Of a stretch of DNA of 64,000 nucleotides, positions 1,175 through 13,540 are shown one piece after another. Position numbers and translations under genes: made by a program. The notes under the pieces were generated by a model. The model made no database searches and had not been told where the DNA came from. It was given only the letters and a program-made list of their open reading frames with translations. Within the stretch, counting starts at the first letter, position 1. Each line of letters starts with the position of its first letter. Source of the stretch: Gordonia araii NBRC 100433 (GTDB taxonomy: Bacteria; Actinomycetota; Actinomycetes; Mycobacteriales; Mycobacteriaceae); assembly GCF_000241265.1 (NCBI RefSeq), contig NZ_BAEE01000036.1, positions 1-64,000 on the forward strand. The letters are read 5' to 3'.

Positions 1175-1413
1175 CTCACACGACCTCGACCTGCGTGGGG
1201 AATCAATTCGAAGTCCATTCGGCGTCAGGATGCCGAATGGTGCTGGGGTTCGAGTATCGCAGACAAACGAGCATCTATAACTATCGCAACTGAGGACCCG
1301 ACCGGCCTGGCGTTCCGCGAACTAAATCAGTTACATCGTGCCGGTTGGCCCAAGACTTTGATACAACCGGTACATCCGGAGTCTGCAGCACGAAAGGGGA
1401 CCCAGGCCGATGA
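1175..1413 (+). pseudogene. decayed second copy of the toxin-like C-terminal domain
   Basis: No intact ORF exists here, but frame-by-frame translation recovers pieces matching the end of the 3-720 gene. These are VGNQFEVHSASG (compare LGTFTLQSSG), RRQTSIYNYRN before a stop (compare YKTSIYDYYNW), then RELNQLHRAG, and after a frame change AQDFDTTGTSGV (compare AQNFETFGTTGNV). The last fragment stops at 1411-1413, overlapping the ATG of the next lipoprotein gene just as copy 1 overlaps its own partner. At least one in-frame stop and two frameshifts are present. This shows that the domain and lipoprotein were duplicated as a unit and that this copy has died. Confidence 0.6.
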
Positions 1414-1849
1414 GACTTGGCTCAAGCTCTCGATCCCTCACGTGCTGCCTATTGGTCGCCCTATTTTCCGGATGCTCGACATCTTCGGGCGCCGTGGCTC
1501 GGGCGACGGACAGGCTGAATGTCGGCATTCCTGAATCAGCTGCAGATGTTCAAGCACTCGCATCCCTCATCGAGATACAGGGGTCGTGCGTTGGCTTGGA
1601 GTTTCTACTTCCCGAGAGTGAGTGGCGAGGGTATGCCGCTCAATATTTCGGCGAGTCGGATGGAGAGGAGACGTTTCTCGAAACGACGCGTGTGGGCGCA
1701 ACCTTATCGAGTGTGGTACAGACCTTCGGCGACCTGTGATTATGCTCCACGGATATGTCGGCGAAAACGTCGGCCGGGGGAATCTCAAGGTATTCGTCAA
1801 TTGTCAGGATGGCAGGACAAAGCTCGCTTGGGAGCTAGCGAATCCTTAG
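1410..1849 (+). pseudogene. small lipoprotein, paralogue B, frameshifted
   Basis: The gene begins MRLGSSSRSLTCC with a lipobox-like LFSGC and a purine-rich AAAGGGGA about 10 nt upstream. It follows the family pattern (IQGSCVGLEFLLP..EW..YAAQYF) to about position 1680. The frame then changes: the remaining family segment (ACGRNLIECG, then NCQDGRTKLAWELANP) is read in another frame and ends at 1849. Loss of one base near 1680-1682 explains the break. The original frame ends early at 1739, leaving a 109-residue product without the last conserved cysteines. It is probably inactive unless frameshifting restores it. It is the direct tandem paralogue of the lipoprotein at 698-1147. Confidence 0.65.
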
Positions 1850-2009
1850 CTCTATCCAGCCCATCAGCGCCGACCGAGCTCCGGTGCGACACCACGAAGC
1901 ACGACTATGACACGAGGGTTCCTGGAAGATGAACGCCGTCGCTCAGGCCAAGTCAGGACAGATGTGGGAGGAGTCGGCCCGTACGAATCTCGAACGCGAG
2001 GTTCGCTCG

Positions 2010-2039
2010 CTTGGCGGGGTCGGGCTTGGCGGGGTCGGG
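2010..2039. repeat. two tandem copies of a 15-bp unit
   Basis: CTTGGCGGGGTCGGG occurs twice head to tail, just before the stop codon of the HAD gene that is read from the other strand. The surrounding stretch 1850-2053 shows no gene. It forms the boundary between the decayed AT-rich modules and the GC-rich backbone. Confidence 0.6.
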
Positions 2040-2053
2040 CTCTAGTTCGGTGG

Positions 2054-2704
2054 CTAGAGGATCTCCGCGAGCTCGGACAACGAGTCGATGATCGTCGCGC
2101 GTGACGCTTCGGGGCGCAACGCGTGGAGATGCCCCCACGGTCCGCGCCGAATGAGAATCGGCCTCATGCCGGCATCGGTGGCGGGAAGGACGTCGTTGTC
2201 GGTGCGATCGCCGACGTAGGCGATCTGCTCGGGTGGGAAGCCTGCAAGATTCGCGACGGCCGTGAAAAAGCCGGGGAGAGGCTTCTCTACTCCCAGCTCG
2301 GCCGAATTGCGGATCTCGTCGACTGGAAGTTCCATGGCGCATAGGGCCTCGAGTGCGCGCGGAGGCTGGTTGCCGGCGATAACGACGCGCAGACCTCGGT
2401 GACGCAACTCCGCAAGTGCGGGACGGGCATCCGGGTAGAGGTCGTCTCCGTCGAACCCGTTGCGCAGTCCGTTGGGGTCTTCGGCGGCCCACGCCGTTTC
2501 CTCATCACCGATGTCGATTCCCGGCCGGACGATATCGAAGGCCGCGGACACCGGGCGGTCAGTCGCGGCGACGGCACCGATGAGGCCTAGAAACGTCAGG
2601 GGCGTCACCCCGAGGCGCTGCGACCAGCGCATCCAGATTCCGGTCTCGTCGATCAAGGTCTCGCCGACGTCGAACACGACCGCGTGCACATCAGAACTCC
2701 CCAT
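2054..2704 (-). CDS. HAD-superfamily hydrolase
   Basis: The 216-residue protein opens MGSSDVHAVVFDVGETLID. The first motif has Asp-x-Gly-Glu-Thr (DVGET) instead of the usual DxDxT, a change seen in a branch of HAD proteins; the first Asp is still available as nucleophile. Motif II falls near VVIAGNQ, the motif III Lys lies in GVEKPLPGFF, and motif IV is YVGDRTDNDVLPA with acidic metal ligands. This is the fold of small-molecule phosphatases, probably cytosolic; the substrate cannot be told. The gene lies 56 nt downstream of a lipoprotein gene on the same strand, but nothing else links them. Confidence 0.8.
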   Translation of the reverse strand: MGSSDVHAVVFDVGETLIDETGIWMRWSQRLGVTPLTFLGLIGAVAATDRPVSAAFDIVRPGIDIGDEETAWAAEDPNGLRNGFDGDDLYPDARPALAELRHRGLRVVIAGNQPPRALEALCAMELPVDEIRNSAELGVEKPLPGFFTAVANLAGFPPEQIAYVGDRTDNDVLPATDAGMRPILIRRGPWGHLHALRPEASRATIIDSLSELAEIL

Positions 2705-2760
2705 GGGACGACAATACGTGCGCCCTCACCGCCAGCAATGCTCTTGCCCACCGGTCGATC

Positions 2761-3186
2761 TCACTCAGTCGTCCCCCAGGCGATCCTCGCCTGACCATTA
2801 ACGCAATGGGGGATCACTTCTATCGACCGCCCAATTCCGTCGTGTTGGCCTGATGCCTGGAAACCCTTGACCAACGCGCCTCCCTCGCAGTCGATCAAGG
2901 CATGGCCGCAGAAGCCCGGGGCGGAACTCAAGTCGTCGAGTTCGTCCGCTCCGAAGTAGGGGGTGACGTATGCCGCCCAGTCTGCTTCGGGAATCAGGAA
3001 TTCTAGGCTCGAGCAACCACCTTGCACGGTGAAAGGTGGATCATTCACCTTGATGTGTGACGCGTTGGCAGGCACGCTCACACCGATGCGGCTCGCGAAA
3101 TTCACCGCACCCCGATCAGTGCCGGTACTGGAGCACGATGTTAAAGCCCCAGCCAGTAGTGCCGTCATTACCGCCGTCGCTCTCAT
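2761..3186 (-). CDS. small lipoprotein, paralogue C
   Basis: The open frame extends further upstream, but the Met at 3186 gives a clean lipoprotein start: MRATAVMTALLAGALTSC, a short positive region, a hydrophobic stretch and an LTSC lipobox. The 141-residue product shares the family pattern with the genes at 698 and 1410: VQGGCSSLEFLIP, W..YVTPYF, FCGHALIDCEG, and C..GQARIAW at the end. It is GC-rich and adapted to the host, unlike copies A and B, and has no toxin-like gene beside it. It may be a resident ancestor or an orphan immunity-type gene; function is unknown. No strong ribosome binding site is visible before 3186, so the exact start is uncertain. Confidence 0.7.
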   Translation of the reverse strand: MRATAVMTALLAGALTSCSSTGTDRGAVNFASRIGVSVPANASHIKVNDPPFTVQGGCSSLEFLIPEADWAAYVTPYFGADELDDLSSAPGFCGHALIDCEGGALVKGFQASGQHDGIGRSIEVIPHCVNGQARIAWGTTE

Positions 3187-3393
3187 TCCGGAAACAACCC
3201 AAGAACCACTGTCCGTGGTGCGCGCGCATCGTGTCCGCTGAACGGACTTATCGGGGAGCTGTCGTCGACTTTGGTTCGGAGGTGTCATAAACTTCGAAAT
3301 TCGGTGCCCATCCCGCCCGATGCAGATCATTTAGGTCCGAGTGTTGTTCTGATGGGTACTCTCTCGTTGTATCCCAGTAATGGTAATGCTTCC

Positions 3394-4163
3394 CTACCGC
3401 CAACCCAGCTCCGGCGCGACCTGCGTCAGAATCGACTCGATCACGTGGGCGTTGTAGTCGACGCCGAGCTGGTTGGGAACCGTTAGGAGCAGCGTGTCGG
3501 CCGCGGCGATCGCCTCGTCCTCGCGCAGCTGTGCGATCAGTTCGTCGGGCTCGGCCGCGTAGGTGCGTCCGAAGCGGGCCTTCACATTGTCGATGATCCC
3601 GACCTGGTCGGAGTCGGCGCGGCCGCCGAAGTAGGCGCGATCGCGGTCGTCGACCAGCGCGAAGATGCTGCGGCTGACCGACACTCGCGGCTCGCGCTCG
3701 TGACCGGCTTCACGCCACGTGTCGCGGAACCGCTGAATCTGTTCTGCCTGCAGCTGGTGGAACGGGATGCCGGTGTCCTCGGTGAGCAACGTCGAACTCA
3801 TCAGGTTCATGCCCTGTTGGGCAGTCCATTCGGCGGTGGCCCGTGTGCCCGCACCCCACCAGATGCGGTCGCGCAGGCCGGTGGACTGCGGCTCGATCCC
3901 GAGCAACCCGGGTGGGTTCGGGAACATCGGCCGCGGGTTCGGCTGCGCGAATCGGGTGCCCTCGATGGCGGTGAGGAAGGCGGCGGTGTGGTCGCGTGCC
4001 ATCTCCGCGTCGGACGATCCCTCGTCGGGGACGTAGCCGAAGTACTTGTAGCCGTCGATGACCTGTTCGGGCGATCCCCGGCTGACGCCCAACTGCAGCC
4101 GGCCACCGGCGAGCAGGTCGGCGGCACCTGCGTCCTCAGCCATGTACAGGGGATTCTCGTACT
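3394..4163 (-). pseudogene. luciferase-like flavin oxidoreductase, C-terminal three quarters (split by the element)
   Basis: Read on the minus strand, host sequence resumes at QYENPLYMAEDAG and runs about 256 codons to the stop at 3394. It shows LLM-family features: GRLQLGVSRGSPEQV, an internal IWWGAGTRATAEW and TLLLTVPNQLG near the end. The N-terminal 83 codons lie 9.1 kb away at 13289-13540. The codons before QYENP come from the inserted element and give a meaningless start (MNGRCNHDM). Joining the halves at the shared ATGC restores one frame of about 340 codons, the usual length for these FMN- or F420-dependent enzymes. The substrate is unknown. It is inactive while the element is integrated. 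Confidence 0.85.
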
Positions 4164-4185
4164 GCATATCGTGGTTGCAACGCCC
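4150..4185. other. attL, left junction of the element
   Basis: Host sequence (minus strand AGTACGAGAATCCC) meets element sequence at GCAT, 4164-4167. The element side carries CATATCGTGGTTGCA (4165-4179). Its reverse complement resembles TACAACCCAGGCATG at the right end (10 of 15 positions), as expected for the two arms of a serine-integrase attP. The crossover is inferred from restoration of the split gene's frame, not from an empty site. Confidence 0.7.
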
Positions 4186-4205
4186 GTTCACGTAAGCTTG
4201 GTTGC

Positions 4206-5642
4206 ATGGTCGAACTGGTAGCGCTGAGGAAGACGAACGAGGTGGCCGCGTACGTCCGCGCCTCCATGGACCGCAAGGGCGACCGCTGGACGGTCGATAC
4301 GCAGCTGAGGAAGATCAGGGCGCTGGCCGAGGCCAAGGACTGGAACGTCGTCGAGGTCTACGAGGACAACGCGGTGTCGGCGACGAAGAAGCGCCGCGCT
4401 GGCACCCGGTGGGCCGAGATGCTGGACGACGCCCGCGCGGGCCGGTTCTCGATGGTGGTCGCCGTGGACATGGACCGGCTCCTGCGCAGCACGAAGGACC
4501 TGAACACGCTGATCGACCTCGGTCTGCGCGTCGTCACCGTGGACGGCGAGATCGATCTCTCGACGGCGGACGGCGAGTTCCGGGCGACGATGCTCGCCGC
4601 TCTCGCCCGGTTCGAGGCGCGTCGCAAGGCCGAGCGACAGATCAGGTCGAACGAGCGCCGACGTGCCGAGGGCATCCCCGCGTCCACATGGAAGGCGTTC
4701 GGCTGGACGAGGGAGGGCGAAGTGATCGAGGAGGAGGCCGCCGCCGTCCGGCGGGCCTTCGACGCGTTCCTCGGCGAGCCATCGCTGTCGATCCGGCGCA
4801 TCCGAGAGGACCTGAACAACGCCGGTCATCTCACCGCGCGCGGGTCCGAGTTCTCCGTCGATGCCGTGCGGTACCTGCTGGCGAACTCGCTCTACGCTGG
4901 CTTCATCCGCCACTACAAGACCGGCGAGCTGTACCCGGTGCAGGGCGAGGCGTTCCCGCCCATCGTCGGCGAGCAGACGTGGCGGGCCGCGGTGGCGAAG
5001 CTGGAGGACAACGTGCGGAGGTCGGCGAGGCAGGGCAATCAGCCGAAGTACCTCCTGTCCACGATCGGCCTCTGTGGGAAGTGCGGCGCGACGCTCGTCT
5101 CGGGGACAAATAGCCGCAAGCAGCCGACGTACCGCTGTGGCGAGCAGTTCCACCTCACCCGCCAGCGCGAGCCCGTCGATGCGATGGTCACCGAGGCGGT
5201 GCTCACGCGCCTGTCGTCCGTGGACGTGCACGACCTCGTGATGCCGCAGGAGGACGACGGGCCGGATCGCGAGGAACTGCTGACCGAGCGGAACGCCCTG
5301 GTCGAGCGTGTGAAAGAGCTGAGCCCGCTGCTGCGCGACATCCATCAGCCGGTCCTGGAGATCACCGCGGCGATCAACGACGTGAAGGCCCGCATCGATG
5401 AGATCGACACGGAGCTGCTGGACCGCTCGGTGTCGGTGGCGGCGAAGCTGCTGGCGGGCGTGGAGGAGGCGGTCGGCACCGCGGAGCGTCGTGAGGTCGT
5501 CGAGTCGAAGTGGAAGGCGTTGGACATGGACCGTCGCCGGATGCTCGTGGACGAGCTGGTGACGGTGACCATCGAGCCCATAATGCCGGGTCACGTGAAG
5601 TTCGACCCCGATCTCGTGCGGATCGAGCCGAGAAGCGACTGA
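4206..5642 (+). CDS. large serine recombinase (integrase)
   Basis: The 478-residue protein catalyses site-specific integration and probably excision of the element. The N-terminal resolvase domain (about residues 12-150) has the nucleophile Ser20 in AYVRASMDRKG, then RAGTRWAEML and VVAVDMDRLLRS. The recombinase domain spans about 165-275. A zinc-ribbon segment with CGKCGATL and YRCG lies near 290-310, followed by a coiled coil around 350-400, the layout of phiC31/Bxb1-type enzymes. The start lies 40 bp inside attL, so the gene is at the very end of the element, as is usual. A 13-bp inverted repeat follows the stop. No excisionase-like recombination directionality factor is obvious; one of the small ORFs at 5824-6643 could play that part, which is a guess. 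Confidence 0.95.
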   Translation: MVELVALRKTNEVAAYVRASMDRKGDRWTVDTQLRKIRALAEAKDWNVVEVYEDNAVSATKKRRAGTRWAEMLDDARAGRFSMVVAVDMDRLLRSTKDLNTLIDLGLRVVTVDGEIDLSTADGEFRATMLAALARFEARRKAERQIRSNERRRAEGIPASTWKAFGWTREGEVIEEEAAAVRRAFDAFLGEPSLSIRRIREDLNNAGHLTARGSEFSVDAVRYLLANSLYAGFIRHYKTGELYPVQGEAFPPIVGEQTWRAAVAKLEDNVRRSARQGNQPKYLLSTIGLCGKCGATLVSGTNSRKQPTYRCGEQFHLTRQREPVDAMVTEAVLTRLSSVDVHDLVMPQEDDGPDREELLTERNALVERVKELSPLLRDIHQPVLEITAAINDVKARIDEIDTELLDRSVSVAAKLLAGVEEAVGTAERREVVESKWKALDMDRRRMLVDELVTVTIEPIMPGHVKFDPDLVRIEPRSD

Positions 5643-5644
5643 CT

Positions 5645-5684
5645 CATGACTCGACTCGTCATTGCACTGGTGAGTCGAGTCATG
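5645..5684 (+). terminator. inverted repeat after the integrase gene
   Basis: CATGACTCGACTC (5645-5657) pairs perfectly with GAGTCGAGTCATG (5672-5684) around a 14-nt loop, 2 nt after the integrase stop. There is no U-tract, which is common for actinobacterial terminators. It could equally be a protein-binding palindrome. Confidence 0.55.
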
Positions 5685-5823
5685 GGAGAATGGTTGCAGA
5701 CAAGAAGATCCCACCGGGGCCGCGACTTAGAAGCGCGGGGTTCTGCTCCCGGATGAGTAGCCGGTCAAACAGCCCAATTACCGTGGCGGGGAACCGGAAG
5801 ATACTCATGTCTGAGGACTTCCG

Positions 5824-6036
5824 ATGTCTGTCGTTATCGACGTCCCCCGCGCATCCGCGCTCGACCACCCTCGCCTCGATCAGGGCTCCACTCCTTCGCC
5901 GCAGGCAGACGGCCACGATCCCGTCATCGCCGCCGCCCGTGCCGCTGGCCGCCGAGCCGGTGAGCGCCTGGCACTCACTCCGCTGACCCCGCGCCAGCGC
6001 GCCGCCGTTGCCTCTGTGATGGGTGGTGGTCGCTGA
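5824..6036 (+). CDS. small hypothetical protein of the element (70 aa)
   Basis: The product of 70 residues (MSVVIDVPRASALDHP to AAVASVMGGGR) has GAGGA a few bases before its ATG. Its stop overlaps the next start as TGATGA-type coupling at 6034-6038. The C-terminal half is Ala/Arg-rich and probably helical. No family is recognised. The 181 nt between the integrase and this gene hold the inverted repeat and likely the promoter for the rightward operon, but no clear -35/-10 pair stands out. Confidence 0.5.
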   Translation: MSVVIDVPRASALDHPRLDQGSTPSPQADGHDPVIAAARAAGRRAGERLALTPLTPRQRAAVASVMGGGR

Positions 6037-6284
6037 TGAGCGCGAACTCCGCCGCCTTCGATCACCTGACCGGCTTCCGCTGGCGTCAGGGCGACCCGTC
6101 CCTCGCCGACGCCGAGGCCCAGCTCTACGACCTCGGCGTGCTCCGCTCCGTACTGGAGGAGGCGGTCGAGATCGCCGTCGCCGACGCCCGCGCCGACGGG
6201 GTGACCTGGGCCAGGATCGGCGACGCGCTCGGCGTCACGCATCAGGCTGTCATCAAGCGCTACGGCCGGGGCGGTGGTCGCTGA
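6036..6284 (+). CDS. small helix-turn-helix protein
   Basis: This 82-residue protein ends with a classic HTH: TWARIGDALGVTHQAVIKRY, where IGDALGV is the first helix and turn and HQAVIKRY the recognition helix. Related short proteins in actinobacterial plasmids and phages are DNA-binding. It probably regulates the rep-mob operon or copy number, or acts as a recombination directionality factor; the sequence alone cannot decide. It is tightly packed between the genes at 5824 and 6284. Confidence 0.65.
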   Translation: MSANSAAFDHLTGFRWRQGDPSLADAEAQLYDLGVLRSVLEEAVEIAVADARADGVTWARIGDALGVTHQAVIKRYGRGGGR

Positions 6285-6643
6285 TGTACGCCGACGCACG
6301 CAACCTCAGCACCGCTCCCACCGACCTGACCCCGCCCGGAGGGCCTGGCCTGGCACCCGCCGAAGGCGGGCTGCCCGTCGTCGTGATGACTGCCCGTAGC
6401 CGTGCTTCGCACTCCAAGAGTTACGAGACCCTCATTCGTTCCTACGGGCGCGGCAAGGGCTTGTCGATTGCCGCGCCATGCAACAACGTGCCTGGTCAGC
6501 AGCCGGTTCCGCCCTCGCTCCGTCGCGTGGCCTCGTGGGATCATTTTGGGTCTCATTTGGCGGTCAATAGGGGGTCATTTAGGCGCCGCACTCCCTCTGA
6601 GACCCTCCGCGCCGCCCGCGGCGGGGGTGGTCGCCGTGGCTAA
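6284..6643 (+). CDS. possible small ORF overlapping the origin region
   Basis: An ATG overlaps the stop of the HTH gene (TGATG), and the frame stays open for 119 codons (MYADARNLSTAPTDL onwards) to within the 5' end of rep. The first part has plausible codon use. The last third runs through iteron-like repeats and reads as low-quality sequence, so either the protein is unreal or only its coupling start matters. Treat it as doubtful. Confidence 0.3.
   Translation: MYADARNLSTAPTDLTPPGGPGLAPAEGGLPVVVMTARSRASHSKSYETLIRSYGRGKGLSIAAPCNNVPGQQPVPPSLRRVASWDHFGSHLAVNRGSFRRRTPSETLRAARGGGGRRG
6541..6583 (+). other. iteron-like repeats, candidate replication origin
   Basis: Three copies of TCATTT followed by GG-type ends occur in 43 bp: TCATTTTGG at 6541, TCATTTGG at 6553 and TCATTTAGG at 6575. 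They lie in a local AT-rich patch 50-90 bp before rep. Short direct repeats directly upstream of rep are the usual place for Rep binding and a double-strand origin. No nick site is proven. Confidence 0.45.
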
Positions 6644-8042
6644 GCAGGAGAACAACCCGACGAGCATCGGGCTCACGCAATACCTCGATCCGTCGTACTG
6701 GGCCTGGGCTGCCGAGGACCCGAACGGGGCCGCGCTGCTCCAGCAGGGTGCCGAGGCGATCCTCGCCTACGTGGTGCAGCGGCTCGAGGCCACCGGCTGC
6801 GAGGTCGTCGAGGCCTACGGCATCGTGCACGACAAGGACGAGCGCGAGGTCTGGAGCGACACGGAGAAGGCCCTGGTGGTCGAACTGAAGCCCGAGCACC
6901 TGCACGCCGTGATCAAGTTCGCCAGCCGTGCGAAGAGTGCGCCGCTGGATCGGCTCGCGTTCGGCATCGGTGTCGAGCCTCAGTACGTCGAGAAGCCTGG
7001 CCGCGGGCGGTACGCCTTCGACAACATGCTGTCGTATCTGACGCACGTGAAGTACGCGGACAAGCACCAGTACGCGCCTTCGGAGGTTGCCACGGTGCGG
7101 GGGCCTGAGTATCTCGGGATCGACGCCCAGCGCCGGGAGACGTGGCTGAAGGGCCGCGCCCACGTGAAGAAGAAGGTCGTCGCCGAGAACTTCGAGGACA
7201 TGCGGGAGCGCGTGCTCCAGGGTGAGATCACGCGGGATCAGATCATGCTCACGGACGAGCTGTTCGACATCTACTCGCGGCATCAGCGGGAGATCGACGA
7301 CGCGCTGTCGGCCTACGGCCAGCGCCGCGCGTACCGGGCGGCCGCGAAGCTGCGCGCCGGTGCCTTCTCGACGCACGTGGTGTTCGTCCACGGGGATGCC
7401 GGGATCGGCAAGACTCGGTTCGCAACGGATTTCATCACCGAGGCGATTAGCGCGGCCAATGCACATGGCGAGCGGTGGCAGGTCTACCGTGCCGCGACGG
7501 GGAACCCATTGGATGACTGGCGGGGCGAGGAGGTGCTGCTGCTGGACGATCTGCGGGCCTCGGCGATGGACGCGAACGATTGGCTGCTGCTGCTCGATCC
7601 GTATAACGCCTCGCCTGCGAAGGCTCGGTACAAGGGCGAGGTGGCTCCGCGCCTCATCGTGATTACGGCGACGATCGAGCCGGTCGAGTTCTTCTACTAC
7701 GCCCGCCAGAAGGGCAACGTGGACGAGGCGCTGGACCAGTTCATCCGCCGCCTGGCGTCGGTCGTGAAGGTCTACCGCGCCGACGACATCAACCGCTACC
7801 TCGTGCAGCACATCGGGAAGATCGAGCCCTACGAGTGGCACCAGTGCAGCATCCCGACCGCCGCGCACACGCCCGGCATGTACGGCAACGCGTACCACCA
7901 GAACGCCGGGTCGCGGGAACTGACGTACGGTCCGGAGACCTCGGCGGAACACGACGCGGACGGTGCGGTCGCGGAGCTGCTCAGCGGGCTCGCGGTGCGA
8001 AGTCCGGACGTGCCGCTGGCGCTGATCGAAGGTGCCGCATGA
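6636..8042 (+). CDS. rep: replication initiator: HUH endonuclease fused to a superfamily-3-type helicase
   Basis: The 468-residue product from GTG 6636 (GGGGGTGG upstream; GTG 6627 is also possible) has two parts. The N-terminal nuclease shows an HUH motif HLH at 88-90 (in PEHLHAVIKF) and a catalytic Tyr134 with Lys139 in MLSYLTHVKYADK. The C-terminal ATPase shows Walker A GDAGIGKT (253-260), Walker B LLLDD (301-305) and a motif-C-like IVITAT (341-346). Nuclease plus this helicase is the architecture of CRESS-DNA virus Reps and of the bacterial 'pCRESS' plasmid Reps known from bifidobacteria and other Gram-positives; most rolling-circle plasmids use a host helicase instead. It should nick the origin and unwind DNA for rolling-circle replication of the excised circle. 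It overlaps the next gene by ATGA. Confidence 0.85.
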   Translation: MAKQENNPTSIGLTQYLDPSYWAWAAEDPNGAALLQQGAEAILAYVVQRLEATGCEVVEAYGIVHDKDEREVWSDTEKALVVELKPEHLHAVIKFASRAKSAPLDRLAFGIGVEPQYVEKPGRGRYAFDNMLSYLTHVKYADKHQYAPSEVATVRGPEYLGIDAQRRETWLKGRAHVKKKVVAENFEDMRERVLQGEITRDQIMLTDELFDIYSRHQREIDDALSAYGQRRAYRAAAKLRAGAFSTHVVFVHGDAGIGKTRFATDFITEAISAANAHGERWQVYRAATGNPLDDWRGEEVLLLDDLRASAMDANDWLLLLDPYNASPAKARYKGEVAPRLIVITATIEPVEFFYYARQKGNVDEALDQFIRRLASVVKVYRADDINRYLVQHIGKIEPYEWHQCSIPTAAHTPGMYGNAYHQNAGSRELTYGPETSAEHDADGAVAELLSGLAVRSPDVPLALIEGAA

Positions 8043-8629
8043 GCACCGATCAGCATTCGCTCTTCCAGGGGGTCGAGGGGGCCGGAGGCCCCTCGCAAGC
8101 AGGGCTGGAGGACACGAGCGTCAGCGATGTGTCCGACAGGCCTACTGCTTGCCACTCTGGCGTACAGGTGGAGCAGCAGACCGACTCCCAGGTGAACACC
8201 GGTCGGGCTGATGCGGAGGCTGTGCGTCAGAGTCACGGCGGCGCGAAGCGTCGTCGTGGGGGCCGCGCGAAGCTCGATACCGACTTCGGGGAGGAGACGC
8301 TCGCGGCGCTTCGCACTCGTGCGAAGCGGCTCGGACTGGCTCCGAGCACGTGGGTACGGACCGTCGTACGCGATGCCCTCCACGCCTCCCGCTCGGAGGA
8401 GTTGGACGCCGCCGTGGCGGCGCACCTGCTCGGGGTCGAGGCGCGTGTGCAGGCGTCGGCGGACGCTCGTGAGCTGGCTGCCCAGGTGCGCCCGCTGGCG
8501 ATCAACGTCAACGACTTGGATCGCCGCGCGCGCGCCGGTGAGGCGGTGGCGCTGTCGTCGGAGGTGCCCGAGCTGATCGAGCTGCTGCGCGAGGTCCGCG
8601 CCTTGCTCGGGGATCGGACGGCCGCATGA
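8039..8629 (+). CDS. MobC-like relaxosome accessory protein
   Basis: The 196-residue protein starts with a disordered, polar stretch of about 75 residues, then a basic patch (GGAKRRRGGRAK). Next comes a ribbon-helix-helix-like segment (RLGLAPSTWVRTVVRDAL) and a C-terminal helical region with INVNDLDRRARAGE and ELIELLREVRALLG, reminiscent of the MobC signature around conserved Asn/Leu. Such proteins bind oriT and help the relaxase nick. It overlaps rep and the relaxase by 4 nt each (ATGA), so all three are translated as one operon. The family call rests on pattern and context. Confidence 0.65.
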   Translation: MSTDQHSLFQGVEGAGGPSQAGLEDTSVSDVSDRPTACHSGVQVEQQTDSQVNTGRADAEAVRQSHGGAKRRRGGRAKLDTDFGEETLAALRTRAKRLGLAPSTWVRTVVRDALHASRSEELDAAVAAHLLGVEARVQASADARELAAQVRPLAINVNDLDRRARAGEAVALSSEVPELIELLREVRALLGDRTAA

Positions 8630-9912
8630 GCACCACCCACTACAGCCCGAGCACCAGCGCCGCCGACACCGAGCGCTATATCCGCGGGAAGGAGGACGAG
8701 CGGGGCGTCGCGATCACGTGCGAAGTGCCGGGAGGCCCTGGCGCATTCTCGGCGCGCGCACGGGCGCTCACGCAGAACACCACGCGCGAGGTCGAGGCGC
8801 TGCATTACCGGCAGTCTTTCAGCGACGAGGAGTTCGACCCGAAGAACCCGGAGCACGTGCAGCGGGTGAACGATCTCGGCTATCAGCTCGCGAAGAGGAT
8901 GCACCCCGACTCGGACTGCCTCGTGGTCAGTCACGTGGATGGCCGGGGCAGAAAGCCGCATAACCACATCTTGGTCATCAATCACAGCAACCGGACCGGA
9001 AAGGCGCTCTCGGACTACCGGACGTTCCACGATCGCAAGGCCGGGAACCAGCGGGGCGTGCAGTCGGCGAACGACGAGCTGATGCGAGAGCACGGGCTCT
9101 CGGTCGTGAAGCGTCTGGAGCACGCGCCGATGGACTGGGAGCTGCGCCGCGAGGACTTCGCCGAGGGATCGCTCGACCGCGAGATGGGCGACCGGATGAG
9201 CGCTGCCCTGACCGATCCCCGCGCGGTGGACAAGGCCGGTCTCGAAGCGGTGATCGACGAGCAGAACCAGCAGCTCGGCGATGACGGGGAGAGGGTGCCG
9301 CGGATGCGGCTGCACAGCCCCGTCAGCAAGAAGGGCAAGCGCGCCGGGCAGGAGACCTGGACGCTCTACATCGAGGACTGCCGCGGCGAGTCCGGGCGCG
9401 CCGAGCGCCGCAAGCGCGCGAGCGCACTCTCGGCGGACTTCACCCCGGAGGGCGCGCAGGCGTTCTTCGACTACCACCAGCAGCAGAAGGAGCAGGAACA
9501 TGAGCGCAGCACTCGACAGGCTGAAGCAGCAGAACGGGCCCGTGCAGTCGCCGCCGCCGCTCGGCAGTCCGGAGACGATGGAGCTGTTGACCTCGATCCT
9601 CGCCGCCGTCGAGGCGCAGAATACGAGGATCGCCACGCTGGCCGAGCAGCAGAAGAAGCTCGCGGGGTTCGTGAAGGTCATGGACGAGGAGACGACGAGG
9701 CGGCTGGAGCGGATCACGGCCCCGGCGTCGACCTCCTCGCCCTCCAGCGACGTGTCCGCGAGGATCGCGAGTATCGAGAGCAGGCAGAACGAGATCGCGA
9801 GCACGCTCGGCGAGTTCGCGCAGAGTCTCAACGGCGAGAGCTTGAACGCCGCGTCGCGGAGCTTGGTCGCGGAGGCGCAGAAGAATCGCGCGGCTACGGC
9901 CTCGGCGATTGA
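8626..9912 (+). CDS. relaxase (mobilization nuclease)
   Basis: The 428-residue open frame has a relaxase N-terminal domain. YRQSFSDEEF lies at 61-70, and the metal-binding three-His motif is HVDGRGRKPHNHILVI, with His103, His112 and His114. The first-motif Tyr is probably Tyr6 or Tyr18. It nicks oriT and pilots the strand during conjugative mobilization with a helper secretion system. From about residue 292 the frame is Glu/Arg-rich with poor third-position GC, because another gene is read there in a different frame (9500 onwards). The tail may be real but unconstrained. The MOB class (MOBP- or MOBQ-like) cannot be fixed by eye. Confidence 0.85.
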   Translation: MSTTHYSPSTSAADTERYIRGKEDERGVAITCEVPGGPGAFSARARALTQNTTREVEALHYRQSFSDEEFDPKNPEHVQRVNDLGYQLAKRMHPDSDCLVVSHVDGRGRKPHNHILVINHSNRTGKALSDYRTFHDRKAGNQRGVQSANDELMREHGLSVVKRLEHAPMDWELRREDFAEGSLDREMGDRMSAALTDPRAVDKAGLEAVIDEQNQQLGDDGERVPRMRLHSPVSKKGKRAGQETWTLYIEDCRGESGRAERRKRASALSADFTPEGAQAFFDYHQQQKEQEHERSTRQAEAAERARAVAAAARQSGDDGAVDLDPRRRRGAEYEDRHAGRAAEEARGVREGHGRGDDEAAGADHGPGVDLLALQRRVREDREYREQAERDREHARRVRAESQRRELERRVAELGRGGAEESRGYGLGD

Positions 9913-10405
9913 GGGGCTCAAGGCGCAGGCCGCGGCGAACCAGAAGCTCTTGAGCCAGGTCGGCGGCGCGGTGCAGCGGATCGAGAAGCGCACCGAGGAA
10001 CGGGTCGAGAAGGCCGTCGAGCAGGTCGCCGGGGAGGCTTCGACCACGATGACCGCGAACCTCGATGCGTCGAACGAACGGGCCGAGCGGATCATCGCGG
10101 CGACGGCGAAGCTGGAAGCGCGTCAGCTCTGGTCGGCGGCCGCGGCGATGTGCCTCGCCCTCCTGCCGGTGGTCGTGGTCGTCGCCGGGCTTTGGATGGG
10201 TATCGCCGGGCTCATCACCGGCGCTCAGTGGGCGCTGGACGTGGACGGGAGCGTGTGGCTCGGCATCGGGCGGTGGCTCGCGGTCGGCGCTGGCCTTGCC
10301 GGGTCCGGCTACGGGCTCTTCGCGTCCGTCCGGTGGGCCGCCGGTCTCGTGGAGACGTGGAAGGGTCGCGGGATGCCGACGTGGCCGAGCTGGCGCAAGA
10401 GGTGA
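9500..10405 (+). CDS. coiled-coil membrane protein overlapping the relaxase gene (MobB-like)
   Basis: The start at 9500 (MSAALDRLKQQNG) has an AGGAG 7-10 nt before it. Third codon positions are almost all G or C from the first codon, even though the first 413 nt lie inside the relaxase frame. The 301-residue product is a long coiled coil (about residues 20-200, with heptad-rich Glu/Ala/Leu/Gln) followed by two hydrophobic segments near 217-240 and 255-280. In RSF1010 and ColE1, small membrane-associated Mob proteins are likewise encoded in another frame inside the relaxase gene. A similar role, stabilising the relaxosome at the transfer pore, is inferred. Confidence 0.75.
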   Translation: MSAALDRLKQQNGPVQSPPPLGSPETMELLTSILAAVEAQNTRIATLAEQQKKLAGFVKVMDEETTRRLERITAPASTSSPSSDVSARIASIESRQNEIASTLGEFAQSLNGESLNAASRSLVAEAQKNRAATASAIEGLKAQAAANQKLLSQVGGAVQRIEKRTEERVEKAVEQVAGEASTTMTANLDASNERAERIIAATAKLEARQLWSAAAAMCLALLPVVVVVAGLWMGIAGLITGAQWALDVDGSVWLGIGRWLAVGAGLAGSGYGLFASVRWAAGLVETWKGRGMPTWPSWRKR

Positions 10406-10454
10406 CCGTGATTCCCGAGGGCAAGCGCGCAGAGCGCGTGCGGCAGCCCTGCAA

Positions 10455-10503
10455 CTGGACGATAGGTCAGCACACACTGTATAGTTCAGTGCATGCTGAC
10501 TAT
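10455..10503 (+). promoter_or_regulatory. cmtR promoter and operator
   Basis: A -10-like TATAGT (10480-10485) follows CTGGAC (10455-10460) at about 19 bp. An inverted repeat, ATAGTTCAG (10481-10489) and CTGACTAT (10496-10503), spans the start codon at 10493. No Shine-Dalgarno precedes that ATG, and a start site 7 bp after the -10 would coincide with it, so a leaderless mRNA is likely. CmtR binding here would autorepress the metal operon. Confidence 0.55.
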
Positions 10504-10861
10504 TGCTTCGCGCCTCGACGTCATGAACCGGCTGGGCCGGGCCATGGCGGACCCGACGCGCTCCAAGATACTGATGTCCCTGCTCGACGGCCCGAGCCAC
10601 CCCGCCGTGCTCTCGCGCGAGTTGGGGCTGACGCGGTCGAACGTGTCGAACCACCTAACCTGCCTGCGCGACTGCGGGATCGTGGTCGCCGAGCCCGAGG
10701 GCCGCCAGACCCGCTACGAGATCGCCGACCCACACCTGGCCGCGGCGCTGACGGCGCTGGTGGACGTGACGCTGGCGGTGGACGAGAGCGCGCCGTGCAT
10801 CGACCCGCACTGCTCGGTGCCCGGTTGCTGCGCCGCGACAGGCTCGGAGGACGCTTCGTGA
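10493..10861 (+). CDS. cmtR: CmtR-type cadmium/lead-sensing ArsR-SmtB repressor
   Basis: The 122-residue winged-helix repressor matches M. tuberculosis CmtR closely in order and spacing: RLGRAMADPTRSKILMSLLDG, then the recognition helix LTRSNVSNHLTCLRDCG. The metal ligands sit at Cys57 and Cys61 (in LTCLRDC) and Cys102 (APC), the same positions as the known Cd/Pb site. Extra cysteines follow (HCSVPGCC). Without metal it should repress; Cd(II) or Pb(II) releases the operon. It overlaps the ATPase gene by 4 nt (GTGA). Confidence 0.9.
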   Translation: MLTIASRLDVMNRLGRAMADPTRSKILMSLLDGPSHPAVLSRELGLTRSNVSNHLTCLRDCGIVVAEPEGRQTRYEIADPHLAAALTALVDVTLAVDESAPCIDPHCSVPGCCAATGSEDAS

Positions 10862-12825
10862 GCGCGGCCTGCGGCTGCGACGAGCCGGCCGCCAGCGCCG
10901 CCGAGGAGGTGGAGGAGGAGGCCGAGCGCCCGTGGTGGCGCGACCCGGGCCTGGTGGTGCCGATCCTCTCCGGCGTCGCGTTCGGCATCGGCCTGTTGCT
11001 GGAGTGGTTGGGGCTGCACGTCGCGGCGCTGGTCGCGTTCTGGGCGGGCCTGCTGCTGGGCGCGTACACGTTCGCGCCCGGCGCGCTGCGGAACCTGTTC
11101 GTCAAGCGGAAGCTGGGGATCGCGCTGCTGATGACGATCAGCGCCGTCGGCGCGGTCATCCTCGGCTACGTCGAAGAGGCCGCCGCGCTGGCGTTCCTGT
11201 ACTCGATCGCCGAGGCCCTGGAAGACAAGGCGATGGACCGCGCCCGCGGCGGCCTGCGCGCGCTACTCAAGCTCGTGCCGGAGACCGCCACCGTGCTGCG
11301 CGACGGTGCCTCGGTCGAGATCCCGGCGAAGGAGATCGCCGTCGGCGACGTGCTGCTGGTCCGCCCGGGCGAGCGGGTCGCGACCGACGGCCTGGTCCGC
11401 GTTGGCCGCTCCAGTCTGGACACGTCGGCGATCACCGGCGAGTCGATCCCGGTCGAGGTCGCGCCCGATGATGCAGTGTCGGCGGGCGCGATCAACACCG
11501 CCGGAGTCCTGGAGGTCGAGGCGACCGCGGCGGGCACCGACAACTCGCTGACCACCATTGTGGAGCTGGTCGAGCAGGCCCAGGCCGAGAAGGGCGACCG
11601 GGCCCGCATCGCCGACCGGATCGCCCGCCCGCTGGTGCCCGGCGTGATGGTCCTCGCCGTCCTTGTCGGCGTGCTCGGCTCGCTGCTCGGCGACCCCGAG
11701 ACCTGGATCACCCGCGCCCTGGTCGTCCTCGTCGCCGCCAGCCCGTGCGCGCTGGCGATCGCGGTGCCCGTCACCGTGGTCTCCGCGATCGGCGCGGCGA
11801 CGAAGTTCGGCGTCGTCATCAAGAGCGGTGCCGCCTTCGAGCGCCTCGGCGGCATCCGCCACCTCGCCGTCGACAAGACCGGCACCCTGACCCGCAACCG
11901 GCCCGAGGTCACCGCCGTCGTCGCCGCCGACGGGTTCGACGACGCCCAGGTGCTCGCCTGGGCAGCGGCCGTGGAGCAGCACTCGACGCACCCGCTCGCC
12001 GCCGCCATCGCCGCCGCGGGCCAAGGAGCGCCCGCCGCGCAGGACGTGACGGAGGAGGCCGGGCACGGCATTGGCGGCATGGTGGACGGCCGCCGGGTGA
12101 CGGTGGGCAGCCCCCGCTGGATCGACGCGGGGCCGCTCAAGGCCCGGGTCGAGGACCTGGAGGCCGAGGGCCAGACTTGCGTGCTCGTGGCCGTCGACGG
12201 CGAACTGGCCGGGGCGATCGGCGTCCGCGACGAGCTGCGCCCCGAGGTCCCCGAGGTCGTGCGCACGCTGCGGGCCCAGGGCGTCGAGGTGAGCATGCTC
12301 ACCGGCGACAACGCCCGCACCGCGCACGCGCTCGCGCAGCTCGCTGGGATCGGCGACGTGCACGCCGAGCTGCGGCCCGAGGACAAGGCCCGCATCGTCG
12401 CCCAGCTCTCTAAGGCCTCGCCGACGGCGATGATCGGCGACGGCATCAACGACGCCCCCGCCCTGGCCGGTACGACCGTGGGCATCGCGATGGGCGCGAC
12501 CGGATCCGACGCCGCGATCGAGTCCGCCGACGTCGCCTTCACCGGTCACGACCTCGGCCTGATCCCGCAGGCTCTGCGGCACGCCCGCCGAGGCCGGGCG
12601 ATCATGAACCAGAACATCGTGCTGTCCCTGGCGATCATCACCGTGCTGCTGCCGCTGGCCATCACCGGCGTGCTCGGCCTGGCCGCAGTCGTCCTCGTCC
12701 ACGAAGTCGCCGAGGTCGTCGTCATCGCCAACGGGCTGCGCGCCGCGCGTGCCCGCAAGAGCCAAGCGGCGGCTGCGTCGCCTGAGACGGCGTCACCGGC
12801 CGCGGTCCGCGCGGACAGAGCCTGA
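10858..12825 (+). CDS. cadmium/lead-type P1B ATPase (CtpG/CadA family)
   Basis: The 655-residue efflux pump starts with GTG overlapping cmtR. It lacks a full N-terminal heavy-metal domain and has only a Cys-rich start (SAACGCDE). The metal-translocation motif is SPC in SPCALAIAVPV, followed by DKTGTLT (phosphorylated Asp), the HP motif in STHPLAAAI, GHGIGG, TGDN and GDGINDAPAL. About six to eight membrane helices are present. SPC together with a cmtR neighbour is the layout of the M. tuberculosis cmtR-ctpG pair. It exports Cd/Pb-type divalent ions from the cytoplasm; exact specificity is inferred. Confidence 0.88.
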   Translation: MSAACGCDEPAASAAEEVEEEAERPWWRDPGLVVPILSGVAFGIGLLLEWLGLHVAALVAFWAGLLLGAYTFAPGALRNLFVKRKLGIALLMTISAVGAVILGYVEEAAALAFLYSIAEALEDKAMDRARGGLRALLKLVPETATVLRDGASVEIPAKEIAVGDVLLVRPGERVATDGLVRVGRSSLDTSAITGESIPVEVAPDDAVSAGAINTAGVLEVEATAAGTDNSLTTIVELVEQAQAEKGDRARIADRIARPLVPGVMVLAVLVGVLGSLLGDPETWITRALVVLVAASPCALAIAVPVTVVSAIGAATKFGVVIKSGAAFERLGGIRHLAVDKTGTLTRNRPEVTAVVAADGFDDAQVLAWAAAVEQHSTHPLAAAIAAAGQGAPAAQDVTEEAGHGIGGMVDGRRVTVGSPRWIDAGPLKARVEDLEAEGQTCVLVAVDGELAGAIGVRDELRPEVPEVVRTLRAQGVEVSMLTGDNARTAHALAQLAGIGDVHAELRPEDKARIVAQLSKASPTAMIGDGINDAPALAGTTVGIAMGATGSDAAIESADVAFTGHDLGLIPQALRHARRGRAIMNQNIVLSLAIITVLLPLAITGVLGLAAVVLVHEVAEVVVIANGLRAARARKSQAAAASPETASPAAVRADRA

Positions 12826-12837
12826 GAGGAGTGGATC

Positions 12838-13140
12838 GTGGAGATCACGTTGCAGTACTTCGACGGGTGCCCGAACTGGGAGGTGCTCGACCGGCGGCTC
12901 ACCGAGGCCCTCGACGGCCGATCGGACGTCCGCGTCGTGCATCAGCGAGTCGAGACTGCCGAGGACGCCGCCCGCCTCGGGTTCCACGGGTCCCCGACCG
13001 TCCTCATTGACGGCTCCGACCCCTTCGCCGACGAGCACACGCCGGTGGGGCTCGCCTGTCGAGTGTTCCGCACTCCTGCCGGGCTGGCTGGTTCGCCCAC
13101 CGTCGATCAGCTGCGCGAAGTACTCGATGCGCCTCTATGA
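12838..13140 (+). CDS. thioredoxin-like small protein of the metal operon
   Basis: A GTG start at 12838 has GAGGAG about 6 nt upstream. The 100-residue product has a thioredoxin-like beta start (ITLQYFDGCPNW) with one cysteine where a CxxC would lie, then GFHGSPTVLIDGSDPF, the usual cis-Pro-containing strand. Another cysteine occurs near LACRVF. Proteins of this sort often sit next to mercury or cadmium resistance genes. It may handle metals or thiols in the cytosol, but no reaction can be assigned. It is the last gene before attR; 13141-13288 holds no other gene. Confidence 0.7.
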   Translation: MEITLQYFDGCPNWEVLDRRLTEALDGRSDVRVVHQRVETAEDAARLGFHGSPTVLIDGSDPFADEHTPVGLACRVFRTPAGLAGSPTVDQLREVLDAPL

Positions 13141-13271
13141 GGGTGGAGCACCGCCGGGTTGCGCGATCATCGCACCGACGCTCAGCGCAGGAAGAGCCGC
13201 CTTCATCGAAAACCAGCCAGGATTGCCGTCAACGTTGTGCTGTAGAGCGCGCCGACGCTGACAACAAGTGC

Positions 13272-13300
13272 TACAACCCAGGCATGCGCTAGCGCATGTC
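13272..13300. other. attR, right junction with a 16-bp perfect palindrome
   Basis: CATGCGCTAGCGCATG (13283-13298) is a perfect palindrome that covers the junction, with the shared GCAT at 13294-13297. TACAACCCAGGCATG (13272-13286) is the element's right attP arm and matches the inverted left arm at 4165-4179. The TAG that now ends the N-terminal oxidoreductase fragment lies in the palindrome. Confidence 0.65.
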
Positions 13301-13540
13301 GATCACGCCGGTCCCGATCTCGATCCGGTCCGTCTGCGCTCCGATCGCCGCCAGCAAGGGGAACGGCGACGCGAGCTGACGCGCGAAATGGTGGACGCGG
13401 AAGTACGCGCCGTCGGCGCCGAGCTCTTCGGCCGCGACCGCCAGCTCGACCGACTGCAGCAACGCATCCGACGCCGACCGGGTCTGTGACCCGGGTGCCG
13501 GCGACCAGTGGCCGAAGGACAGGAATCCGATGTTCTTCAT
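13289..13540 (-). pseudogene. luciferase-like flavin oxidoreductase, N-terminal fragment (split by the element)
   Basis: The start codon at 13540 begins MKNIGFLSFGHW and 83 codons follow, including ADGAYFRVHHFARQ and DRIEIGTGVIDM. The frame then runs into a TAG supplied by the element. It ends where the distal fragment at 3394-4163 begins (QYENPLYMAED), giving the family's usual IDM-YENPLYMAE continuity. The fragment keeps the N-terminal beta-alpha units of the LLM barrel but cannot be active alone. Confidence 0.85.

What the first reader, a model, noticed from the sequence alone, without database searches (positions are those of the whole stretch)
6636..8042. CRESS-virus-like Rep (HUH nuclease plus SF3-type helicase) inside an integrative element
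Rep has HLH at 88-90, Tyr134/Lys139, Walker A GDAGIGKT, Walker B LLLDD and IVITAT. That nuclease-helicase fusion is the plan of eukaryotic CRESS-DNA virus Reps and of bacterial pCRESS plasmids thought to be their ancestors. Here it sits in a chromosomally integrated, mobilizable element of a Mycobacteriales host, coupled to Mob genes and a serine integrase. This could be a new branch of the pCRESS group.
Basis: partly seen in the sequence, partly recalled or inferred. Interest (0 to 1): 0.8.

Follow-up and report, generated by a model that had tools for sequence, protein, structure and literature searches.

The report
Promiscuous integrated plasmid with predicted origin
A small mobile element sits in a bacterial chromosome; its replication protein belongs to a known plasmid family related to certain viruses, and in front of it lies a hairpin, shared by many members of that family, that is probably the point where their copying starts.

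Summary
In detail: window 6636-8042 encodes a nuclease-helicase Rep (Pfam Rep_OBD plus SF3-type RNA_helicase) in a 9.13-kb integrated mobilizable element (core sites 4160/13290) that splits a luciferase-like monooxygenase gene. It is not a new pCRESS branch: motif III reads YLTH, the signature of the published YLxH supergroup (pCRESS4-8), and pCRESS Reps outside groups 7 and 9 are known to be mostly in integrated elements. What I add: (1) related elements sit in the same gene in 22 actinobacterial genera, in both orientations, with exchangeable parts; the window copy is a recombinant; (2) this Rep coexists with a MOBP relaxase and a serine integrase, which argues that it replicates the excised circle rather than being the relaxase; (3) upstream of rep lies a hairpin whose stem changes with compensation while its loop keeps GGGCTTGT: 43 of 59 Rep clusters, against 0 of 1180 shuffles, in Actinomycetota, Streptococcaceae, Clostridia and phytoplasma plasmids. 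I read it as the rolling-circle nick site of the YLxH group, a counterpart of the CRESS nonanucleotide hairpin. A preset stricter motif held in only 17 of 37 new loci; nicking is untested. The window's own Rep has a two-residue deletion and may be impaired.

The parts
4160..13291 (.). whole integrated element, about 9.13 kb, bounded by the core dinucleotide TA (4160-4161 and 13290-13291)
   Evidence: both halves of the interrupted gene, uninterrupted homologues in other genomes and other junctions
3394..4159 (-). C-terminal half of the interrupted luciferase-like monooxygenase gene
   Evidence: PF00296 5e-10; profile continues where the other half ends
13292..13540 (-). N-terminal half of the interrupted luciferase-like monooxygenase gene; the insertion makes a TAG stop at once
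   Evidence: PF00296 4e-11, profile positions 3-75
4206..5642 (+). large serine integrase, 478 aa
   Evidence: PF00239 8e-24, PF07508 2e-12
5645..5684 (.). inverted repeat behind the integrase gene, also in L022 that has another Rep and relaxase, so probably tied to the integration module
5824..6036 (+). small conserved protein, 70 aa, unknown (not scanned against families)
   Evidence: conserved in relatives
6036..6284 (+). small helix-turn-helix-like protein, 82 aa
   Evidence: HTH_23 1e-3, below cut-off; conserved
6447..6477 (+). predicted origin (dso) nick hairpin: 10-bp stem, loop GGGCTTGTCGA at 6457-6467
6537..6583 (+). iteron-like repeats (GGGTCATTTGG type, about 12 nt), predicted Rep binding site
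6636..8042 (+). rep: HUH nuclease + SF3 helicase, YLxH type; carries a 6-bp in-frame deletion in the pre-sensor-1 hairpin region not seen in the 80 relatives
8039..8629 (+). MobC-like relaxosome protein, 196 aa, overlaps the rep stop codon
   Evidence: reading frame and conservation; NikA-like only 0.04, below cut-off
8626..9912 (+). MobA relaxase (MOBP type by its Pfam family PF03432)
   Evidence: PF03432 7e-13
9500..10405 (+). protein behind mobA, coiled-coil and membrane-spanning by my reading of the sequence
   Evidence: conserved in relatives; no Pfam match above cut-off
10855..12825 (+). cargo: Cd/Zn-type P1B ATPase (start approximate)
   Evidence: TIGR01512 1.8e-147
12838..13140 (+). 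cargo: small thioredoxin-like protein
   Evidence: PF13192 0.018, below cut-off; 100% identical in L027-L029

Best explanation
It is an integrative and mobilizable element, in effect a small YLxH-type pCRESS plasmid carried in the chromosome. Steps: the serine integrase excises it at a TA core from the monooxygenase gene (inferred from sequence); on the circle, Rep binds the 12-nt repeats in front of its gene, melts out the hairpin at 6447-6477 and nicks the loop GGGCTTGT with Tyr134, and its SF3 ring unwinds the strand for rolling-circle copying (inferred; the conserved hairpin is shown, the nick is not); MobC and the MOBP relaxase, with a helper's secretion system, carry one strand to another actinobacterium (inferred), where the integrase inserts it in either orientation (both orientations are shown). 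The cargo is predicted metal resistance. The window copy is a recombinant of two such elements (shown) and its Rep may be weakened by a two-residue deletion (inferred).
For: Domains and motifs. Related elements in 37 loci from 22 genera, 11 families, 6 orders; both gene halves found in 32 of 37, C-half on the integrase side in 18, N-half in 13, one rearranged. Window and the Janibacter, Corynebacterium and Glutamicibacter copies are 99.4-100% identical in 500-base bins over 5000-7000 and 9500-13000, while 7500-9000 is 99.6-100% identical to copies in G. alkanivorans, Microbacterium, Georgenia, Gulosibacter and Tessaracoccus. Plasmids pUC073G and pQA504 of Lactococcus (near-duplicates of each other) carry rep-mobC-MOBP relaxase without integrase, Rep 36% identical over 81%. 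Hairpin: strict motif with stem of at least 8 within 600 nt upstream in 70 of 80 loci, against 6 such among 121 motif sites in 3.0 Mb elsewhere, two of these six being likely origins too; 39 different stems, all four Watson-Crick pairs at each of the 7 inner positions. In 59 Rep clusters, exact core with stem 7 or more in 43; core with up to one mismatch and stem 8 or more also in 43, and under this second rule 0 on the reverse strand, 0 in 600 nt downstream, 0 of 1180 shuffles. Not found upstream of the other Rep of L022, which keeps the integrase and cargo.
Against: No experiment. A preset strict motif held in only 17 of 37 new loci, and some of these 'new' loci are close kin of the discovery set; most misses show the loop GGGCTTGTTAT or a longer loop, which was seen after the fact. 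No clear hairpin of this kind in L165-L167 and L169, nor in L117 and L111; absent also in L041. A conserved flank (C)TACG just 5' of the stem in several Actinomycetota resembles the pMV158 nick and could be the true nick. The window Rep deletion may mean that this copy cannot replicate.
Confidence: 0.78

Rival explanations
1. The Rep is itself the transfer relaxase of the element (as proposed for the PF01719-PF00910 proteins of streptococcal IMEs) and the hairpin is its oriT.
For: PMC5357655 (passages) classes such proteins as a novel relaxase superfamily; initiators of this kind might do both jobs.
Against: This element already has a PF03432 relaxase, and the Lactococcus plasmids have one typed MOBP. 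The hairpin stays in L058, L059, L066, L067 and L070, where no relative of this MobA was found in the fetched flanks (other relaxases were not looked for), and in five phytoplasma plasmids typed non-mobilizable.
Confidence: 0.1
2. The hairpin acts as RNA: a terminator, attenuator or copy-control structure of the rep transcript.
For: It lies upstream of rep on the coding strand.
Against: Kept loop with freely changing stem; no T-run behind it in the window; no Rfam family there (one match elsewhere, below its cut-off); distance to rep from 68 to 396 nt among exact-core clusters.
Confidence: 0.08
3. The element is a dead passenger: its Rep is damaged and it persists only in the chromosome.
For: Two-residue deletion in a conserved part of the helicase; other copies have lost integrase and part of rep (L007 and L072, the same place) or carry stops or a frameshift in rep (L020 and L054, the same place; L057; L069).
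Against: Integrase, mob and cargo genes are open over the length of their relatives and 96-100% (MobC-like 90%) identical to copies in three other genera, so it moved recently.
Confidence: 0.25
4. The Rep was acquired from a CRESS-DNA virus.
For: Same nuclease-helicase plan; viral-type Rep ATPases are the best solved matches.
Against: YLxH motif, Pfam Rep_OBD and no viral Rep nuclease family at E up to 1; the named hits are bacterial plasmids and genomes, with only three weak hits in the phage collection (E 2e-3 to 8e-3); no capsid gene; non-viral origin loop. Viral Reps were not put into the tree.
Confidence: 0.02

Closest known systems
pCRESS4-8, the YLxH supergroup of bacterial plasmid Reps (Kazlauskas et al. 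2019, PMC6668415; passages and section 7 seen)
   Same: PF01719-type HUH nuclease with YLxH, SF3 helicase, site-specifically integrated elements
   Different: no origin motif is given in the passages seen; number of the subgroup not checkable here
Lactococcus plasmids pUC073G (CP068704) and pQA504 (NC_017497)
   Same: rep-mobC-relaxase (typed MOBP) order; GGGCTTGTCGA-containing hairpin 265 nt upstream of rep
   Different: extrachromosomal, no integrase, no metal cargo; Rep 36% identical
Streptococcal IMEs with PF01719-PF00910 proteins (PMC5357655, PMC5704250, passages)
   Same: same two domains in integrated mobilizable elements; the Streptococcus rep loci seen here mostly have the same hairpin upstream (whether these loci are IMEs was not tested)
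   Different: there the protein is taken as the relaxase and goes with tyrosine integrases; here serine integrase and a separate PF03432 relaxase
CRESS-DNA virus Reps (e.g. PDB 7lar, PCV2 Rep by recall)
   Same: nuclease-helicase plan; stem-loop origin with a nonanucleotide loop (PMC8780604, passages)
   Different: loop GGGCTTGT instead of the viral nonanucleotide (TAGTATTAC, recalled); motif III YLxH; no capsid
pMV158 family rolling-circle plasmids
   Same: PF01719 nuclease, YLxH motif shared (PMC6668415, passage)
   Different: no helicase domain; nick TACTAC(C)G/A (PMC3541243, passage)

Membership tests
pCRESS YLxH supergroup (pCRESS4-8) | HUH nuclease fused to SF3 helicase | tested here: met
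   PF01719 and PF00910 above cut-off; invariant catalytic residues
pCRESS YLxH supergroup (pCRESS4-8) | YLxH in motif III | tested here: met
   YLTH at 134-137
pCRESS YLxH supergroup (pCRESS4-8) | encoded in a site-specifically integrated or extrachromosomal plasmid | tested here: met
pCRESS YLxH supergroup (pCRESS4-8) | groups with the reference pCPa Rep apart from pCRESS1-3 in a tree | tested here: inconclusive
   actinobacterial clade 100/100; p4M falls on a very long branch on the same side of the midpoint root and pCPa on the other; no outgroup, deep order unsure
pCRESS YLxH supergroup (pCRESS4-8) | membership in a numbered subgroup | not testable with these tools
   the list is in a supplement that is not held
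integrative and mobilizable element (IME) | own integrase, own relaxase or oriT, no secretion system | tested here: met
   integrase and relaxase by Pfam; no secretion-system family among the main ORFs of 4160-13291 that were scanned (the 70-aa ORF at 5824 was not)
integrative and mobilizable element (IME) | excises and is mobilized by a helper | not testable with these tools
   needs an experiment
CRESS-DNA virus | capsid gene | tested here: not met
   no capsid family among the scanned ORFs of the element
CRESS-DNA virus | viral nonanucleotide origin loop | tested here: not met
   the conserved loop is GGGCTTGTCGA
pMV158 family | single-domain Rep without helicase | tested here: not met
   PF00910 present

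The most novel reading that the evidence does not exclude
GGGCTTGT in a hairpin loop is the shared rolling-circle nick site of the entire YLxH pCRESS supergroup, from Actinomycetota to Streptococcaceae, Clostridia and phytoplasmas: a bacterial counterpart of the CRESS-virus nonanucleotide hairpin. The loop is a virus-like TAGTGTTAC in p4M (pCRESS1-3; one case), so the origin loop would track the branch point near which CRESS viruses are thought to have arisen.
Probability: 0.7. Interest if true: 0.78.

Novelty: new variant of a known kind. Interest (0 to 1): 0.62.

Why it matters
The pCRESS plasmids are held to be close to the ancestors of CRESS-DNA viruses (PMC6668415, passages), yet my searches (and passages; open-licence papers only) showed no described origin for the YLxH group. 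A predicted nick site makes the mechanism testable with a short oligonucleotide, would help to settle whether these proteins are replicators or relaxases in IMEs, and gives a second character besides the protein for tracing how plasmid origins became viral ones. The element itself is a recently moving carrier of predicted metal resistance, seen in six orders of Actinomycetota (order names as the tool gives them).

Tried and rejected

DNA folding of 6440-6640 as a whole is no stronger than shuffles (z -0.58); the signal is the hairpin's conservation, not its overall energy. Rfam gave one match elsewhere below its cut-off. IMG/VR gave only three relatives. A search for p4M-like Reps in 394 genomes of the class found none, without a positive control; in plasmids only p4M itself. 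My first p4M hairpin candidate (loop with GGGCTTCTC) was dropped for the TAGTGTTAC hairpin that lies directly upstream of rep; that is one case only.

A stem alignment by MAFFT was misaligned and one of its rows (L157) had a wrong coordinate by my arithmetic; it was not used. The regex count of the helicase loop (69 of 80) was too strict; one search gives 76 of 80 in frame, and of the other four L069 and L097 have it in another frame, L072 has it, and L087 has a variant. In one search the rows L038, L072 and L172 were dropped beforehand as truncated; L069, a frameshifted near-copy of the window Rep, counts as a cluster of its own, and without it the count is 42 of 58. Strict misses (10 of 80): L038 and L072 truncated; L059, L061, L063-L065 with loop GGGCTTGTAGA; L101 at -794; L105 stem 7; L041 absent. 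Several loci are the same place fetched twice (L001 with the window; L002, L005, L030; L003, L006; L007, L072; L020, L054; L021, L053), so the 41 loci are fewer places.

Papers: PMC6668415 passages and section 7; PMC8780604 passages and section 10; PMC5704250, PMC10669575, PMC7168690, PMC5357655, PMC3541243, PMC7563491, PMC13107129 passages only; others only in search listings. IME2287 of Rhodococcus (PMC10669575) was considered and rejected: no relaxase, other Rep.

Full report
WHAT IS THERE. Window 6636-8042 (+) encodes a 468-residue Rep. Pfam finds Rep_OBD (PF01719, 6e-8) and RNA_helicase (PF00910, 6e-7), both over their cut-offs. In an alignment of 8 Reps, this one included, H65, H88, H90, Y134, H137, K143, Walker A and B residues and R372 are invariant. 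A profile of 45 Reps (this one included) matches solved Rep ATPase domains first (9pqj 3e-12; 7lar 5e-8), over the helicase part only; other AAA+ proteins follow at 2e-3 and weaker.

THE ELEMENT. The gene lies in a 9.13-kb insertion in a luciferase-like monooxygenase gene. Both halves are present; of 11 homologous loci from other genomes that I inspected, 9 are uninterrupted and 2 are occupied by a related element. At the C-half junction the window has, left of TA, a base that none of the nine empty sites has, so I place the crossover at TA. A palindromic core should allow both orientations, and both are found: of 37 related loci, 32 show both gene halves, 18 with the C-half at the integrase side (as here), 13 inverted, one rearranged. 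Gene order: serine integrase, two small proteins, rep, mobC-like, mobA (PF03432), a further protein, then cargo. Cargo here is a Cd/Zn-type ATPase; of the other cargo regions sampled, some carry a pyridine nucleotide-disulphide oxidoreductase (mercuric-reductase-like by my reading) with a MerR-family regulator, and one an MFS transporter.

SPREAD AND RECOMBINATION. Within the family 4 of 401 genomes (own included) have the Rep and in the class 2 of 394 (own included), so it is rare there, but a scan of one genome per species found 85 relatives, 80 kept. Thirty-seven of these (L027-L057, L060, L062, L068, L069, L071, L072), chosen because they share further genes of the element or its site (L033, L035 and L038 are cut by contig ends, L072 has lost the integrase), come from 22 genera, 11 families and 6 orders. 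The window copy is a mosaic: 99.4-100% identical per 500 bases to the Janibacter, Corynebacterium and Glutamicibacter copies over 5000-7000 and 9500-13000, but about 90-94% over 7500-9000, where it is 99.6-100% identical to the copies of G. alkanivorans, Microbacterium, Georgenia, Gulosibacter and Tessaracoccus. Breakpoints therefore lie inside rep and mobA. In L022, from another family of the order, the same integrase, site and cargo type flank a different Rep (YLPH, PF00910) with a Mob_Pre relaxase: rep and mob appear to be exchanged as a block.

WHAT IT BELONGS TO. YLxH defines pCRESS4-8, and outside pCRESS7 and 9 97.5% of pCRESS Reps are in site-specifically integrated elements (PMC6668415, passages and section 7). 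In a tree of 51 Reps the actinobacterial ones form one clade (100/100) next to, with weak support (92/68), a group of Lactobacillales and one Alistipes MAG; p4M and L022 sit on very long branches, so deep order is not settled. The claim of a new pCRESS branch is thus not supported; whether the 2019 survey already held this clade I could not check.

REPLICATOR OR RELAXASE. A survey of streptococcal IMEs treats PF01719-PF00910 proteins as putative relaxases, found with tyrosine integrases, while MOBP relaxases there go with serine integrases (PMC5357655, passages). This element has a PF01719-PF00910 Rep, a PF03432 relaxase and a serine integrase together. Lactococcus plasmids pUC073G and pQA504 have rep, mobC and a relaxase typed MOBP and no integrase. 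The simplest reading is that Rep maintains the circle and MobA transfers it.

THE PREDICTED ORIGIN. Between the small HTH gene and rep, a 37-nt sequence is identical in 41 of the 108 loci then held, some of them the same place: a hairpin with a 10-bp stem at 6447-6456/6468-6477 and loop GGGCTTGTCGA. In more distant Reps the stem sequence is different but still pairs, while the loop is kept. With a strict motif and a stem of at least 8, 70 of 80 loci have it within 600 nt upstream on the rep strand; elsewhere in the same loci 121 motif sites in 3.0 Mb include 6 with such a stem, two of which are probably origins as well. Of 83 loci examined (80 plus three plasmids) 79 have a hairpin; 39 stems differ, with all four Watson-Crick pairs at each of the seven inner positions; arms of different loci pair at 30% (the 100% for own arms is partly by selection).

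A TEST ON NEW DATA, AND ITS LIMITS. In 295 genomes of the family of L073 (Streptococcus) 56 have relatives, in 396 of the phylum 3 (own included). The preset motif held in 17 of 37 loci whose upstream region was not already in the discovery set, some of them close kin of it. Of the 20 misses, 8 clearly show the same hairpin with loop GGGCTTGTTAT (L157-L160, L162-L164, L170), three a longer loop with the same core (L145, L146, L175), L161, L168 and L174 a related one and L156 a one-mismatch core; L165-L167 and L169 show none, and L172 is truncated. With GGGCTTGT as core, chosen after that, 43 of 59 Rep clusters (80% identity, 140 Reps) have an exact core with a stem of 7 or more; with up to one mismatch and a stem of 8 or more it is again 43, and by this rule none on the reverse strand, none in 600 nt downstream, none in 1180 dinucleotide shuffles. 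Of 7 complete plasmids fetched for this, 6 have exactly one, 251-269 nt upstream of rep (one of them, L118, is a near-duplicate of L023), and L117 has none; of three viral contigs L109 has one upstream, L110 has one far downstream that would be upstream if the contig is circular, L111 none. The reference pCPa has a shorter variant (loop AATGGGCTGTC, 7-bp stem).

BINDING REPEATS AND LINKAGE. Iteron-like repeats of about 12 nt lie between hairpin and rep; their sequence differs between lineages, and three loci lack exactly 12 nt there. A nick hairpin plus a separate binding repeat is the plan of known rolling-circle origins (PMC13107129, passages). The hairpin goes with Rep: it was not found with the other Rep of L022, and it is kept in L058, L059, L066, L067 and L070, where integrase and MobA relatives were not found. 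I therefore propose it as the dso nick site. The exact bond is not known; a conserved CTACG just before the stem in several, but not in the Clostridia and phytoplasma examples shown, is an alternative.

CONTRAST WITH VIRUS-LIKE ORIGINS. The pCRESS1-3 reference p4M has, directly upstream of rep, an 8-bp hairpin with loop CATAGTGTTAC, close to the viral nonanucleotide TAGTATTAC (recalled). One case only, but it suggests that the origin loop changed together with the Rep lineage nearer to the viruses.

STATE OF THIS COPY. The window Rep lacks two residues in the pre-sensor-1 hairpin region of the helicase, a 6-bp in-frame deletion at a short direct repeat; none of the 80 relatives shows it (76 of 80 have the motif in frame; for the other four). 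That hairpin contacts DNA in PCV2 Rep (PMC8780604 section 10). The copy may be impaired; a sequencing error cannot be excluded.

VERDICT. The protein and its setting are a new member of a known group; the spread, modularity and separation from the relaxase make it a useful variant; the predicted origin is the part that would surprise a specialist.

Noticed in passing
L022 (G407) 1324-10828: Same integrase, integration site and type of metal ATPase as the window element, but a different Rep (YLPH motif, PF00910 only) and a Mob_Pre relaxase: rep and mob swapped as a block.
   Followed up: partly
L108 (p4M) about 2730-2756: Hairpin with loop CATAGTGTTAC directly upstream of rep, resembling the CRESS-virus nonanucleotide.
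   Followed up: partly
window 7500-9000: Block from another lineage of the same element: the window copy is a recombinant with breakpoints in rep and mobA.
   Followed up: yes
window, rep gene, helicase part (about 7626): 6-bp in-frame deletion in a conserved loop, not seen in the 80 relatives.
   Followed up: partly
L041 and L048 (Actinomyces oris): Element copies with a truncated integrase match beside a monooxygenase gene that reads on past the usual junction.
   Followed up: no
L007/L072 (Gordonia alkaliphila): Decayed copy: integrase and the N-terminal part of rep were not found, mob genes and cargo remain.
   Followed up: no
window 5645-5810: Highly conserved non-coding stretch behind the integrase gene with a 20-nt inverted repeat, kept also in L022; function unknown (excision site, promoter or oriT are possible).
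   Followed up: no
window 6440-6446 and relatives: Conserved CTACG just 5' of the origin hairpin in several Actinomycetota, reminiscent of the pMV158 nick sequence.
   Followed up: partly
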